64,000 bases of DNA from NCBI RefSeq assembly GCF_016909495.1, contig NZ_JAFBFW010000002.1, forward strand, positions 1 to 64,000, written 5' to 3'. Position 1 is the first letter of the stretch; each line of letters starts with the position of its first letter. The position numbers were made by a program, and so were the translations under genes. This DNA comes from Pantoea coffeiphila (GTDB lineage: Bacteria; Pseudomonadota; Gammaproteobacteria; Enterobacterales; Enterobacteriaceae). This document shows, in pieces, positions 1 to 64,000 of the stretch. The notes beneath the pieces were generated by a model. It searched no databases. It worked only from the letters and a program-made list of their open reading frames with translations, and had not been told where the DNA came from.

Positions 1-216
1 CTAAAGCTGCAACGCATATTGCCAGGAGAGAATCAGTTTCTGCTTTTGATCTTTTTCGGCGAATCCTGACCAGTTAGCCGATGGGGAAGTTTGTTACCTG
101 GCCCTGTCCTGCTGCGAAATCCATAGCCGAAAGGGAGTCAGCCTGTACGGCAGACGGGAAATCCGCCAGTCCGCTTCGTGACTTCAGTGTTGCTTTCAAG
201 GAAATTCACATGACCG
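1..216 (+). repeat. Truncated first copy of a tandem duplication leading into structured repeat A
   Basis: Positions 1-153 are nearly identical to 217-369, so the unit repeats with a period of 216 bp. This copy has the left arm of the structured element (GGGAGTCAGCCTGTACGG, about 133-150) but then jumps at about 160 into a segment ending in GACTTCAG. That segment also flanks the minus-oriented element near 3296-3340. The body and right arm of the element are missing, so this looks like a deletion remnant or a recombination joint. The window begins inside it, so its left limit is unknown. I see no coding signal; the short open frames here follow the repeat. Confidence 0.75.
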
Positions 217-348
217 CTAAAGCTGCAACGCATATTGCCAGGAGAGAATCAGTTTCTGCTTTTGATCTTTTTCGGCGAATCCTGACCAGTTAGCCGATGG
301 GGAAGTTTGTTGCCTGGCCCTGTCCTGCTGCGAAATCCATAGCCGAAA

Positions 349-554
349 GGGAGTCAGCCTGTGCGGCAGACGGGCAATCCGCAGCGCCGAGGTGAAAGCA
401 GCTGGCCAGGAGACGCCAGCAGGACGCTGGCGTCAGGCGGGGTCGGTACAAGGATGTACCGTCTCCGCCGGTCCGACCGGCCAGATGCTGTAACCGAGGG
501 CACCGCGCAACGCGCGGCGCGAGGACCGGCCGGCGGCCGCACAGGCTGACTCCC
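349..554 (+). repeat. Structured GGA-hairpin repeat, copy A (full length)
   Basis: A 206-bp intergenic module closed by a perfect 19-bp inverted repeat (349-367 with 536-554). Inside, in order: a hairpin with stem GACGCCAGC (412-420/426-434) and loop AGGAC; a long hairpin 436-469 whose inner stem CGGTACA/TGTACCG presents loop AGGA; a CCGGT/ACCGG hairpin at 468-480; and CCGCGC/GCGCGG at 503-517 followed by GCGAGGACC. Copies at 3385-3590 and 50699-50896, and inverted copies at 3118-3312 and 50181-50376, keep this order while stems change in a compensating way. That implies selection on a folded RNA or single-stranded DNA. It may be a transcribed RNA that binds CsrA, or a REP/BIME-like mobile palindrome; no transposase gene is in the window. 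Confidence 0.85.
436..469 (+). promoter_or_regulatory. Candidate CsrA (RsmA) site in hairpin of repeat A
   Basis: Positions 446-457 read GTACAAGGATGT, a perfect match to the SELEX-derived CsrA consensus RUACARGGAUGU. The GGA lies in the tetraloop of a 7-bp stem (444-450/455-461), which continues after one U-U mismatch into an outer stem (436-442/463-469). This is the geometry CsrA prefers. Function depends on whether the element is transcribed in this direction, which the sequence does not show. Confidence 0.5.
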
Positions 555-565
555 GGACACCTGCG

Positions 566-656
566 CCTCAAGCCTCAAGCCTCAAGCCTCAAGCCTCAAG
601 CCTCAAGCCTCAAGCCTCAAGCCTCAAGCCTCAAGCCTCAAGCCTCAAGCCTCAAG
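566..656 (+). repeat. Tandem array, 13 perfect units of 7 bp (CCTCAAG)
   Basis: Thirteen uninterrupted CCTCAAG units start 12 bp after the right arm of repeat A. The unit length is not a multiple of three and no gene runs through it. There are no spacers, so it is not a CRISPR. Arrays of different unit follow the other two plus-strand copies. Confidence 0.95.
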
Positions 657-3041: not shown

Positions 3042-3116
3042 TGCATCGGTGATTCGTTGCGTGTCCGGTGATCGTGCTGACTGGTGATTTATTGCCTGCA
3101 TGACCAGTGATCGCGC
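3042..3116 (-). repeat. Two diverged units of about 39 bp beside repeat B
   Basis: On the minus strand two imperfect copies (GCGCGATCAC... and GCACGATCAC...) repeat with a 39-bp period. They directly follow the 3' side of minus-oriented repeat B and may be an old, decayed counterpart of the perfect short arrays behind copies A, C and F. Confidence 0.55.
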
Positions 3117-3117
3117 T

Positions 3118-3312
3118 GACTGGCGGGTTTCCCTAATGGGACTTGTCCTCGCGCCGCGATGCGATGCCTTCACTTCTTTCGTCAGCCTTTCGGACCAGTG
3201 CAGACGGGGCGTCCTGCCCCGGCTGCGCTTTTCGTCCGCGTCCATGCGGCCGAATCCGGGCTTCCTCTCTACGTTCAGCGCTGCGGATGCCCAAACGGGA
3301 AACTCGCCAGTC
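3118..3312 (-). repeat. Structured GGA-hairpin repeat, copy B (inverted)
   Basis: A 195-bp module in minus orientation. Its terminal inverted repeat is 16 bp with one G-T pair (3118-3133 with 3297-3312) and has a sequence unrelated to the arms of copies A and C. Minus-strand hairpins are CGGGGC/GCCCCG with loop AGGAC (3205-3221) and CCGC/GCGG with loop ATGGAC (3236-3249), followed by a GCGCGAGGAC segment near 3147-3156. The order and GGA loops match the other copies although the stems differ. It faces away from copy C, 72 bp to the right. Confidence 0.75.
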
Positions 3313-3384
3313 CGCTTCGTGACTTCAGCGTTACCTTCAGGCAATCGACCCATTTAGATCAGGCGGCGAACCCCATAGCCGAAA

Positions 3385-3590
3385 GGGAGTCAGCCTGTGC
3401 GGCAGACGGGCAATCCGCAGCGCCGAGGTGAAAGCAGCTGGCCAGGAGACGACAGCAGGACGCTGGCGTCAGGCGGGGTCGGTACAAGGATGTACCGTCT
3501 CCGCCGGTCCGATCGGCCAGATGCGGCAACCGAGGGCACCGCGCAACGCGCGGCGCGAGGACCGCCCGACCGCCGCACAGGCTGACTCCC
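3385..3590 (+). repeat. Structured GGA-hairpin repeat, copy C (full length)
   Basis: A near-identical sister of copy A: 206 bp, the same 19-bp terminal inverted repeat (3385-3403 with 3572-3590), the same GTACAAGGATGT CsrA-consensus hairpin (3472-3505; motif at 3482-3493), and a damaged first hairpin (GACGACAGC instead of GACGCCAGC). It lies between the receptor gene and the glsB-like gene. A 62-codon frame is shared with copy A but not with copy F, so it is not taken as a gene. Confidence 0.85.
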
Positions 3591-3617
3591 TGACACCGGT
3601 ATCACCGCTTCCCCCCT

Positions 3618-3689
3618 GCACCAATGCACCAATGCACCAATGCACCAATGCACCAATGCACCAATTCACCAATTCACCAATTCACCAAT
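3618..3689 (+). repeat. Tandem array, nine units of 8 bp (GCACCAAT, then TCACCAAT)
   Basis: Six GCACCAAT units followed by three TCACCAAT units, without spacers, begin 27 bp after the right arm of repeat C. The two unit versions are in blocks, as expected if the array grew by slippage from a mutated unit. Confidence 0.95.
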
Positions 3690-3710
3690 GCAAGCATCCA
3701 CGCCACCAAT

Positions 3711-3783: not shown

Positions 3784-4032
3784 TCAGCTACGTACCTTGC
3801 GATAAATCCACAGCACCACAATCGCGCCGATCACCGCAACCACAAAGCTGCCGAAATTAAACCCGTCAACCTTACCAAAACCAAAGAAGGTACTGATCCA
3901 GCCGCCGACAACCGCACCGACAACCCCCAGCACCACGGTAATGATAAAGCCGCCACCGTCCTTACCTGGCATAATCCACTTGGCGATAATACCGGCGATC
4001 AATCCAAAAATGATCCATGACAGAATACCCAT
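3784..4032 (-). CDS. GlsB/YeaQ/YmgE family small membrane protein
   Basis: An 82-residue protein of the GlsB/YeaQ/YmgE family (historically called transglycosylase-associated). It is almost wholly hydrophobic, with three predicted membrane helices (about 3-22, 27-50, 58-77), the glycine-rich GxxxG pattern of the family (GVVGAVVGGW) and a conserved MPGKDGGGF turn after the first helix. It acts in the inner membrane; its molecular role is not established, and family members are stress-induced. Length equals the family norm. It is a single gene with its own terminator. Which paralog it is (YeaQ or YmgE) cannot be told. Confidence 0.85.
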   Translation of the reverse strand: MGILSWIIFGLIAGIIAKWIMPGKDGGGFIITVVLGVVGAVVGGWISTFFGFGKVDGFNFGSFVVAVIGAIVVLWIYRKVRS

Positions 4033-50087: not shown

Positions 50088-50180
50088 CGGGCGATTTGGT
50101 CCGTTTTATTGTGCTGAGTTCGGTTCAGCAGTGGAGTTTAAGTTAAACGCTTGTAGCTGTCTGAACCGTTTTGCGGCGCT

Positions 50181-50376
50181 GAGCGGCAGAGTCCCCCTTC
50201 GGGCGGGTCATCGCGTCGCTTCGCGATACCTTCTCTCCGATCGTCAGCCTGTCGGACCGCCTGAGACGTGCCATCCATGGCACGGCTCAGGCTTTCGTCC
50301 ACATCCCTGTGGCCGAATCCTGGCTTCCTCTCTTCGCTCAGCGCTGCGGATTGCCCGTAGGGTGCCCCTGCCGCTC
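50181..50376 (-). repeat. Structured GGA-hairpin repeat, copy D (inverted)
   Basis: A 196-bp minus-strand module; terminal arms GAGCGGCAG (50181-50189) and CTGCCGCTC (50368-50376). Minus-strand hairpins: CCACA/TGTGG with loop GGGA (50299-50312) and CGTGCCA/TGGCACG with loop TGGA (50267-50284), nested in an outer GCCTGAG/CTCAGGC stem (50259-50265/50286-50292) after one mismatch, the same design as copy A. A TCGC-GAA-GCGA hairpin near 50213-50226 corresponds to the CCGCGC/GCGCGG stem of A. Sequence GGGCAATCCGCAGCGCTGAG is shared with copy F. Confidence 0.75.
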
Positions 50377-50426
50377 CGCTTTTACATTCTGCGTTGCCTG
50401 CTAAAAAATCGTGTTCGTCCGCCACA

Positions 50427-50640
50427 AGAAATACATTTCACATCGCGATTAAAGAAAGATTGAAGGGACGGACTCTGCGGTGGCTGCCGGGCATTCCGCA
50501 GCGCTGGGGTGGCAGCAACTGGCCAGGAGACGCCAGCAGGGAAGCTGGTTTCAGGCTAAATTGGGTTCGGGTGGCAAGCAGGCAGCCCGTTAACGGCAAT
50601 TGCTGGCATTTTTCCTGGTATTTTATGTGCTGCGAAATAT
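50427..50640 (+). repeat. Structured repeat, copy E (right part lost)
   Basis: Positions about 50427-50530 are a diverged duplicate of 50653-50760, including the flank ACAAGAAATACATTTCACATC and the left arm CTGCGGTGGCTGCCGGGCA. The first hairpin is broken (GACGCCAGCAGGGAAGCTGG), and no right arm follows. As at 1-216, a truncated copy lies just ahead of a full one. Confidence 0.65.
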
Positions 50641-50698
50641 ACGCAATGCACCACCAGAAATACGTTTCACATCGCGATAAAGAGAGATAAAAAGGGAA

Positions 50699-50896
50699 AG
50701 CCTCTGCGGTGGCTGCCGGGCAATCCGCAGCGCTGAGGTGGCAGCAGCTGGCCAGGAGACGCCAGCAGGACGCTGGCGTCAGGCGGAGTCGGGTCAGGGA
50801 CGACCCGTCTTTGCCGGTCCGACCGGCCAGATGCTGACACCGAAGGCATCGTGCAGAGCACGACGCGAGGACCGCCCTGCAGCCACCGCAGAGGCT
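50699..50896 (+). repeat. Structured GGA-hairpin repeat, copy F (full length)
   Basis: A 198-bp module with a perfect 18-bp terminal inverted repeat (50699-50716 with 50879-50896) that differs from the arms of A and C. Hairpins: GACGCCAGC-AGGAC-GCTGGCGTC (50758-50780); CGGGTC/GACCCG with loop AGGGAC (50790-50807) in place of the CGGTACA stem of A; TCGTGC-AGA-GCACGA (near 50849-50863) in place of CCGCGC/GCGCGG. These paired changes support a conserved fold. Confidence 0.85.
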
Positions 50897-50925
50897 GAAC
50901 CGAGCACCTGAACTTCCAGCAACGC

Positions 50926-50983
50926 CAGTAACTTCAGTAACTTCAGTAACTTCAGTAACTTCAGTAACTTCAGTAACTTCAGT
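50926..50983 (+). repeat. Tandem array, six units of 9 bp (CAGTAACTT)
   Basis: Six perfect CAGTAACTT units plus CAGT, preceded by a diverged unit (CCAGCAACG), 30 bp after the right arm of repeat F and 33 bp before the ycfJ stop. Confidence 0.95.
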
Positions 50984-51016
50984 GATTTTCGACCAAATTC
51001 GCCCTCAAACCAACAA

Positions 51017-63591: not shown

Positions 63592-63618
63592 AAAAAAAAG
63601 CCCGCCGATAAGGCGGGC
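63592..63618 (-). terminator. Terminator after fabF
   Basis: Minus-strand GCCCGCC/GGCGGGC stem followed by eight T, 20 bp past the fabF stop. It separates fabF from pabC in part. Confidence 0.92.
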
Positions 63619-63638
63619 CTTTACGCAAGAGCAAAAAA

Positions 63639-64000
63639 TCAGACCTTACGGAAAATCAGTGACCCGTTGGTGCCACCAAATCCGAATGAATTACACAGAG
63701 TGTATTCCATACCTTTCACCTGGCGCGCAGTATGCGGCACGAAATCCAGGTCACAACCTTCATCCGGGTTATCCAGATTGATGGTTGGAGGAACAACCTG
63801 ATCGCGCAGGGCAAGAATAGTGAAGATCGATTCGATCGCGCCCGCCGCACCCAGCAGGTGGCCGGTCATGGATTTTGTCGAGCTGACCATCACGCTACCG
63901 GCAGAAGCACCGAAGACGGATTTCACCGCCTGAGCTTCAGCGATATCACCGGCCGGCGTTGAAGTACCGTGCGCGTTGATATAACCAATCTGTTCCGCTG
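63639..64000 (-). CDS. fabF: 3-oxoacyl-ACP synthase II (C-terminal part)
   Basis: The last 120 residues of beta-ketoacyl-ACP synthase II, cut by the window end. Seen: [13 protein letters not shown] with one catalytic His, [15 protein letters not shown] with the second His and Lys, and the end [15 protein letters not shown]. The active-site Cys lies outside the window. It elongates palmitoleate to cis-vaccenate and adjusts fluidity with temperature. Confidence 0.96.

What the first reader, a model, noticed from the sequence alone, without database searches (positions are those of the whole stretch)
349..554. A family of structured intergenic modules with covarying stems and invariant GGA loops
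Seen: five near-complete copies (349-554 +, 3118-3312 -, 3385-3590 +, 50181-50376 -, 50699-50896 +), all 195-206 bp. Each is closed by a terminal inverted repeat of 9-19 bp whose sequence differs between groups of copies but is complementary within each copy. The main hairpin changes from CGGTACA/TGTACCG to CGGGTC/GACCCG, CGGGGC/GCCCCG and CGTGCCA/TGGCACG, while the loop stays AGGA, AGGGAC, AGGAC or TGGA. The CCGCGC/GCGCGG stem becomes TCGTGC/GCACGA or TCGC/GCGA. Such compensating change indicates selection on a fold. MITE ends would be conserved in sequence, unlike these arms. Inference: a family of RNAs, or a mobile single-strand DNA palindrome. I do not know a described family of this form.
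Basis: partly seen in the sequence, partly recalled or inferred. Interest (0 to 1): 0.9.

Follow-up and report, generated by a model that had tools for sequence, protein, structure and literature searches.

The report
Paired CsrA-type hairpin repeats between genes
The window holds copies of a genome-wide repeat made of two back-to-back folded modules, each showing two hairpins that look like docking sites for the global RNA-binding regulator CsrA; the single module was already catalogued as an RNA of unknown function, and its paired, high-copy layout is what stands out.

Summary
The five copies are real, and their stems covary far beyond chance. They are not an unknown family: all five reach the Rfam gathering score of RF01731, TwoAYGGAY, already proposed to bind CsrA (PMC4333381, passages). 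New here is the organisation. The host genome has at least 76 matches. Modules come in two types, A and B, standing 5'-to-5' on opposite strands: 32 of 34 multi-module loci are exactly one such pair. Loop GGA is kept in 365 of 368 hairpins while stems change. In internal helices G-U pairs outnumber A-C mismatches 124 to 15 on the GGA strand, leaving out one region with an alignment artefact (126 to 66 with it); the terminal stem shows 89 to 88. So selection on the core is strand-specific. Distribution is patchy: 10 of 30 congeneric genomes. The host has no RAYT-type (Y1) transposase match, and no promoter or terminator signal marks free sRNA genes. Best reading: a composite interspersed repeat whose read-through RNA presents two CsrA-type sites 25-31 nt apart. 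CsrA binding, transcription and the mobilising enzyme are untested. New variant of a known kind.

The parts
346..562 (+).
   Evidence: RF01731 53.1 bits at 407-475; B-type profile; both halves at the orthologous site in G111
407..475 (+). TwoAYGGAY core of c1, with AGGA and CAAGGATG loops
3106..3320 (-). Module c2, type A
   Evidence: RF01731 45.5 bits at 3192-3257; A-type profile
3192..3257 (-). TwoAYGGAY core of c2
3321..3381 (.). Spacer between the facing 5' ends of c2 (A) and c3 (B)
3382..3599 (+). Module c3, type B, partner of c2
   Evidence: RF01731 45.3 bits at 3443-3511; B-type profile
3443..3511 (+). TwoAYGGAY core of c3
50175..50384 (-). Module c4, type A
   Evidence: RF01731 63.8 bits at 50244-50322; A-type profile
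50244..50322 (-). TwoAYGGAY core of c4
50463..50566 (+). Partial type B copy (5' half) in the c4/c5 spacer
   Evidence: (D4)
50688..50907 (+). Module c5, type B, partner of c4
   Evidence: RF01731 52.5 bits at 50753-50821; B-type profile
50753..50821 (+). TwoAYGGAY core of c5
1..382 (+). 216-bp tandem duplication of spacer and 5' part of the B module (1-166 against 217-382, 98%)
   Evidence: D6
565..656 (.). Short tandem repeat (7-bp unit) just past the 3' end of c1
   Evidence: D2
3617..3690 (.). Short tandem repeat (8-bp unit) just past the 3' end of c3
   Evidence: D3
50925..50985 (.). Short tandem repeat (9-bp unit) just past the 3' end of c5
   Evidence: D5

Best explanation
This is a composite interspersed repeat built from TwoAYGGAY modules. 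A unit is two homologous but distinct ~220-nt modules, A and B, facing away from each other (5' ends inward, about 60-670 bp apart), with either module able to expand into tandem copies. Shown: identity with RF01731, high copy number, A/B layout, covariation, conserved loops, strand-biased wobble pairs. Inferred: read as RNA in the GGA sense, a module closes by its terminal stem and presents two hairpins with the loop motif CA(N)GGA(N)G, 25-31 nt apart, which a CsrA dimer could bridge. The modules show no promoter and terminator signals of their own, so if transcribed they are probably made by read-through from neighbouring genes. Because A and B face opposite ways, read-through from either side yields one sense module. 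The transcript then ties up CsrA, or lets CsrA act on the 3' tail. How the units spread is unknown; no RAYT-type transposase match exists in the host.
For: RF01731 hits: 5 of 5 window copies, 76 in the host genome, 70 of them over the cut-off (150 of 181 candidates scored). Loops: GGA in 365 of 368 hairpins and A(N)GGA in 363 of 368, in 184 modules from four genomes. At least two GGA loops in the MFE fold of 31 of 36 cores from ten further genomes, by a plain string count. Spacing of the two GGAs 25-31 nt in 181 modules, inside the 10-63 nt, optimum >18 nt, reported for CsrA bridging; the SELEX consensus RUACARGGAUGU with GGA mostly in a hairpin loop fits, c1 and c3 carrying GGUACAAGGAUGUACC (PMC7652899 passages). 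Internal helices keep G-U over A-C 124:15 with one region left out, 126:66 with it, and 145:25 by columns. In seven orthologous module pairs, 15 base pairs changed on both sides and stayed paired. Among 98 neighbouring full modules of four genomes, 64 are A/B facing 5'-5', 31 same type and strand, 1 faces 3'-3', 2 are A-A+. A CsrA match in 30 of 30 congeneric genomes. CsrA binding of this Rfam family was proposed by PMC4333381 (passages).
Against: No binding or transcription data. No sigma-70 excess upstream of modules in the sense direction (A 4.25 against 4.84 shuffled, B 5.45 against 5.35) and few T-runs past the 3' ends (2 of 47, 3 of 38); the reverse direction upstream of A, which points at B, scores 5.83, so a weak promoter for B in some spacers is not excluded. 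In several loci a neighbouring gene's terminator-like sequence lies between gene and element (by eye), which would reduce read-through. CsrA is in all 30 genomes but the repeat in only 10, so CsrA does not explain the distribution. Wobble bias fits a strand-specific ssDNA hairpin as well as RNA. The modules were collected with profiles made from such copies, so copies without GGA loops may have been missed. Double changes far outnumber one-sided ones (342 and 359 cells against 65 and 75, the latter added by hand), which could point to DNA-level palindrome correction.
Confidence: 0.5

Rival explanations
1. A strand-specific ssDNA mobile element of fold-back or REPIN style: the inverted A/B pair folds when single-stranded and an unidentified transposase recognises the GGA hairpins. 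The sequence need not act as RNA.
For: High copy number with patchy distribution. Inverted heterotypic pairs resemble REP dimers (PMC3733652 passages). In G112 the pair ends in long terminal inverted repeats, by eye. Tandem expansion and partial copies. G-T mismatches are also better tolerated than A-C in ssDNA (recalled). No clear promoter signal.
Against: No Y1 transposase (PF01797) match in the host, G100, G102 or G109, although the repeat is abundant there; G111 and G112 have one weak match each, E 1.4e-4 and 2.6e-6. Other transposase families were not searched. No clean insertion with target duplication seen at 13 compared sites. The loop motif is that of a known RNA-binding protein.
Confidence: 0.3
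2. DNA palindromes without a function of their own: hairpin-templated repair (template switching) keeps the arms complementary and slippage near the hairpins makes the tandem copies and short repeats.
For: Terminal stem shows no strand preference, 89 G-U against 88 A-C, though a 28-bp stem might simply tolerate any single mismatch. Few one-sided G-U intermediates. Many partial tandem copies and locus-specific short repeats.
Against: Does not explain GGA in 365 of 368 loops while stems vary, nor 124:15 in internal helices, nor the conserved core across genomes.
Confidence: 0.1
3. A set of stand-alone CsrB/RsmZ-like sRNA genes, each with its own promoter and terminator.
For: Two GGA hairpins per module, as in Csr/Rsm sRNAs.
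Against: No promoter excess in the sense direction and few terminators; short spacers serve two divergent modules (61 bp for c2/c3); tens of copies per genome.
Confidence: 0.05

Closest known systems
TwoAYGGAY RNA (Rfam RF01731; PMC2864571 and PMC4333381, passages)
   Same: Core of two GGA hairpins within an outer stem; 5 of 5 window copies over the gathering score
   Different: In the passages read it is a motif of human gut, gamma-Proteobacteria and Clostridiales, not described as a high-copy interspersed repeat with divergent A/B pairs and arrays
CsrB/CsrC and RsmX/Y/Z CsrA-sequestering sRNAs
   Same: GGA in hairpin loops, paired sites at bridging distance
   Different: No clear promoter or terminator of their own; many dispersed copies; two sites per module; sequestration untested
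REP / BIME / REPIN elements (PMC3733652 passages; PMC2817692 and PMC3116915 search listing only)
   Same: High-copy extragenic palindromes in inverted, often heterotypic, dimers and mosaics
   Different: ~220-nt multi-helix modules instead of 20-40 bp hairpins; no RAYT-type match in the host
YPAL/RU-2 and ERIC/RU-1 small mobile sequences of enterobacteria (PMC2229807 passages)
   Same: Non-coding, mostly intergenic, ~100-200 bp, strongly foldable, possibly mobile
   Different: The passages do not describe divergent two-type pairs; kinship by sequence was not tested because no YPAL sequence was at hand

Membership tests
TwoAYGGAY (RF01731) | Score at or above the family's gathering threshold | tested here: met
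   5 of 5 window copies, 45.3-63.8 bits against 43; 70 of 76 genome matches over the cut-off
TwoAYGGAY (RF01731) | Two adjacent hairpins with A(Y)GGA(Y) loops | tested here: met
   A(N)GGA in 363 of 368 hairpins; the nucleotide before GGA is often a purine in these copies, and five-base loops occur
TwoAYGGAY (RF01731) | Outer stem of the 168-position model | tested here: inconclusive
   The five window matches lie within model positions 43-123; these copies do have a covarying terminal stem of their own
CsrA/RsmA-binding RNA | GGA in hairpin loops, paired sites at bridging distance | tested here: met
   criteria from PMC7652899 and PMC4383904 passages
CsrA/RsmA-binding RNA | Physical binding to CsrA | not testable with these tools
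   needs EMSA or CLIP; CsrA gene present
Csr/Rsm sRNA gene | Own promoter and terminator | tested here: not met
   no promoter excess in the sense direction, T-run past the 3' end in 5 of 85 (promoter matrix recalled, consensus scan only)
REP/BIME/REPIN | RAYT (Y1 tyrosine transposase) in the genome | tested here: not met
   0 PF01797 matches in G000
REP/BIME/REPIN | Palindrome of 20-40 bp | tested here: not met
   modules are ~220 nt with several helices
REP/BIME/REPIN | GTAG or CGTC tag at one end | not tested
   no count was made
REP/BIME/REPIN | Inverted dimers or mosaics of alternating orientation | tested here: met
   64 of 98 neighbouring modules are A/B facing 5'-5'
MITE | Conserved terminal inverted repeats and target-site duplication | tested here: inconclusive
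   arms vary between host loci; long TIRs in G112 by eye; 13 sites in G099 lack the pair but hold 7-277 bp of other sequence, so no duplication could be read
YPAL/RU-2 | Sequence similarity to the 168-bp Yersinia repeat | not tested

The most novel reading that the evidence does not exclude
A selfish composite repeat has spread a genome-wide CsrA sink: tens of inverted A/B units sit between genes, and the inverted layout ensures that leaky read-through from either side always makes one sense CsrA-binding module, so repeat copy number helps set the free CsrA level and hence the Csr regulon of the host.
Probability: 0.2. Interest if true: 0.85.

Novelty: new variant of a known kind. Interest (0 to 1): 0.6.

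Why it matters
TwoAYGGAY has had no established function in the papers seen here since its 2010 description, and its proposed link to CsrA was made for Clostridia. Six congeneric genomes with 27 to 64 matches in one search (76 for the host in its own search), next to relatives with none, give a natural copy-number series in bacteria that have a csrA gene, so the hypothesis becomes directly testable. The strict A/B inverted layout also raises the question, noted in print for REP dimers too, why heterotypic pairs are preferred.

Tried and rejected
Unknown family: rejected, Rfam match. REP/RAYT element: rejected as membership, no PF01797 match in the host. Stand-alone sRNA genes: no promoter excess in the sense direction and few terminators. 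Preference for convergent genes: a first look gave 20 convergent, 22 codirectional, 7 divergent and 2 undetermined of 51 loci, but against a rough baseline by a similar ORF method there is no significant difference (p 0.83 and 0.24; only 33 element-bearing gaps classed). The ORF method is crude: at c2/c3 it chose a 126-aa + ORF over the 82-aa - ORF at 3784-4032. Orientation to codirectional flanking genes: the sense module is A in 7 and B in 6 of 13 loci (from the classes): no bias. Clean empty sites: 24 flank pieces gave 16 matches in G099; 13 sites with both flanks compared, none clean; two keep A- or B-like remnants by eye. A pair in G111 absent from the host: the host has a decayed B copy plus an extra gene there. 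Autonomous element with a transposase between A and B: the one wide spacer examined (L187, 1.3 kb) holds a 237-aa DUF6216 protein, no transposase. Phages: no match. Open reading frame test as for YPAL: uninformative, 83 of 84 modules have a stop-free stretch of 56 aa or more in some frame. In more distant genomes the host-made profiles show divergent neighbours but do not reliably tell A from B (for example B-/B+ in L074 and L180, A-/A+ in L084), so the heterotypic rule is claimed only for four genomes and, in 3 of 4 loci, for G112. Literature: TwoAYGGAY is in 7 held papers, 5 listed (passages of three of them read); searches for CsrA plus repeats and for Pantoea/Erwinia repeats listed no paper that describes this layout in its title or abstract start.

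Full report
What was claimed and whether it holds. The five copies exist at the stated places and align. Covariation is real: on an alignment of 47 type A modules from the host genome, 94.9% of cells pair and 48 of 69 pairs have changes on both sides (shuffled mean 24.3, 0 of 500 reach it); on 38 type B modules 92.4% and 55 of 77 (shuffled mean 32.0, 0 of 500). Structures slid by 1-3 columns reach covariation scores of at most 0.056 and 0.066, against 0.319 and 0.365. The structures came from RNAalifold on the same alignments, so the slid control leans in their favour, as the tool warns; related copies also count several times.

What it is. Rfam places all five in RF01731, TwoAYGGAY, at 45.3-63.8 bits with cut-off 43. 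The host genome (5.74 Mb, 25 contigs) has 76 matches, 70 over the cut-off; 150 of 181 candidates were scored, so this is a lower bound; none of 14 control genomes has one. The family is thus described, though without an established function in what I read. Weinberg et al. enter it as 'y n n', the first column meaning probably an RNA (PMC2864571, table passage; the key to the other columns was cut in the passage, and Rfam itself types it Cis-reg). Gardner and Eldai proposed from its loops that it binds CsrA, validation then in progress (PMC4333381, passages). A later preprint calls it relatively unexplored (PMC11661157, passages). I saw no report of a binding test; that rests on the listing and these passages.

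The composite layout. A profile search of 41 host stretches plus the window found 86 near-full modules. They fall into two classes, A and B. Of 51 loci, 34 hold more than one module: 19 are B(-)A(+), 13 A(-)B(+), one A(-)A(+), one B(-)B(-)A(+); 17 are single. The two main classes are the same unit seen from either strand: A and B back to back, 5' ends inward, 66-668 bp between the (somewhat trimmed) profile hits. In the window, c2/c3 and c4/c5 are such pairs, and c1 is half of one that is present with both halves at the orthologous place in G111. Over host, G111, G109 and G100, 98 neighbouring full modules give 64 facing 5'-5' heterotypic, 31 same type and strand (arrays of up to six A in G100), 1 facing 3'-3', 2 A(-)A(+), and none with different types on one strand. 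In G112, 3 of 4 loci are B(-)A(+) and one B(-)B(+); in more distant genomes divergent neighbours are seen but the host-made profiles do not sort the types. Partial copies and locus-specific short tandem repeats are common around the modules.

Distribution. 16 of 99 genomes drawn from the family (the host included) have a match, 9 over the cut-off (strict filters, at most 25 candidates scored per genome). 10 of 30 genomes of the genus have one, 9 over the cut-off; six have 27 to 64 matches in that search, which scored at most 64 candidates each, four have 1 to 4, and 20 have none. Named carriers of an exact type A core pattern are Erwinia sp. JUb26, Pantoea endophytica and Pantoea sp. SOD02 (33 stretches). 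35 plasmid records, all Pantoea, have a related stretch, mostly over about 30% of the query; no phage record does.

Loops and stems. In 184 modules of four genomes, GGA lies in the loop in 365 of 368 hairpins and A(N)GGA in 363; the modules were collected with profiles of such copies, which favours them. Of 36 cores from ten further genomes, taken from hits in stretches I had fetched, 31 fold by minimum free energy into at least two GGA loops by a plain string count (in one of them, L075, the second is not the expected hairpin), with quite different stems; the other five show one. The two GGAs are 25-31 nt apart (181 modules). These are the features of CsrA sites: SELEX consensus RUACARGGAUGU with GGA mostly in a hairpin loop, and dimer bridging at 10-63 nt, best above 18 (PMC7652899, passages). 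c1 and c3 carry GGUACAAGGAUGUACC. A CsrA match exists in 30 of 30 genomes of the genus.

Which strand. If RNA or ssDNA of one strand is the functional form, G-U (G-T) pairs should outnumber A-C in the GGA sense; if double-stranded DNA symmetry is all that matters, they should be equal. With a scoring that treats both alike, 148 non-redundant modules give 124 G-U against 15 A-C in internal helices and 89 against 88 in the terminal stem. I left out one region ('B mid') in which 51 A-C cells seem to come from a fixed column outside the helix; the column count gives 2 G-U and 1 A-C for that helix. With it the internal count is 126 to 66, p = 2e-5 as printed. By alignment columns the internal count is 145 to 25 and the terminal 80 to 111 (summed by hand). 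So the core is under strand-specific selection and the terminal stem shows no such preference; a 28-bp stem might also just tolerate any mismatch. In seven orthologous module pairs between the host and G111, 15 base pairs changed on both sides and stayed paired, 11 changed on one side and stayed paired, 29 have a mismatch in one of the two; an eighth pair could not be matched. Against a plain RNA reading, one-sided changes are few: 342 and 359 cells with double changes against 65 and 75 with one-sided ones (the latter summed by hand). Without a control RNA this is only a hint at DNA-level palindrome correction.

Expression and mobility. Upstream of the modules there is no excess of sigma-70-like sites over shuffles in the sense direction, and few T-runs follow the 3' ends; the reverse direction upstream of A scores somewhat higher (5.83 against 4.84, 5 of 47 at 8 or more), so a promoter pointing at B in some spacers is not excluded (promoter matrix recalled). 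In several loci a terminator-like hairpin with T-run of a neighbouring gene lies between gene and element (by eye). Stand-alone sRNA genes are thus unlikely; read-through is what remains if RNA is made. The host, G100, G102 and G109 have no Y1 transposase match, G111 and G112 one weak match each, so RAYT-driven spread is not supported now; other transposase families were not searched. Thirteen sites compared with G099, which has no RF01731 match, lack the pair but hold 7-277 bp of other sequence, two with module-like remnants by eye, so loss and decay are as visible as insertion. Orthologous pairs in G111 show that some units predate the split of the two genomes.

Best account. A composite interspersed repeat, BIME-like in layout but made of ~220-nt TwoAYGGAY modules, whose sense strand presents two CsrA-type hairpins. 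The inverted pair means that transcription from either side makes one sense module (inference). I hold this at 0.5, with a strand-specific ssDNA mobile element as the main rival at 0.3.

Noticed in passing
L187:2743-3456 (G111:C1): A 237-aa protein (PF19723 DUF6216, E 3.8e-11) lies inside the spacer between a B and an A module.
   Followed up: partly
L183-L186 (G112): In G112 the units end, by eye, in long near-perfect terminal inverted repeats with TTGACC-like short repeats outside, and carry extra 3' hairpins whose stems differ between copies.
   Followed up: partly
window 565-656, 3617-3690, 50925-50985: A short tandem repeat of 7, 8 or 9 bp, different at each locus, lies just past the 3' end of each of the three B modules; several other host copies show similar ones.
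   Followed up: partly
G124 (same genus): 64 matches to Y1 transposase PF01797 in one congeneric genome that has no RF01731 match.
   Followed up: no
L042:3810-3995: The one A(-)A(+) locus of the host: its + module classes as A but has a type B-like terminal stem by eye, perhaps a chimera.
   Followed up: no
window 63592-63684 (-): Sub-threshold match to the tryptophan operon leader RF00513 (28.7 bits, cut-off 41), with a hairpin and T-run.
   Followed up: no
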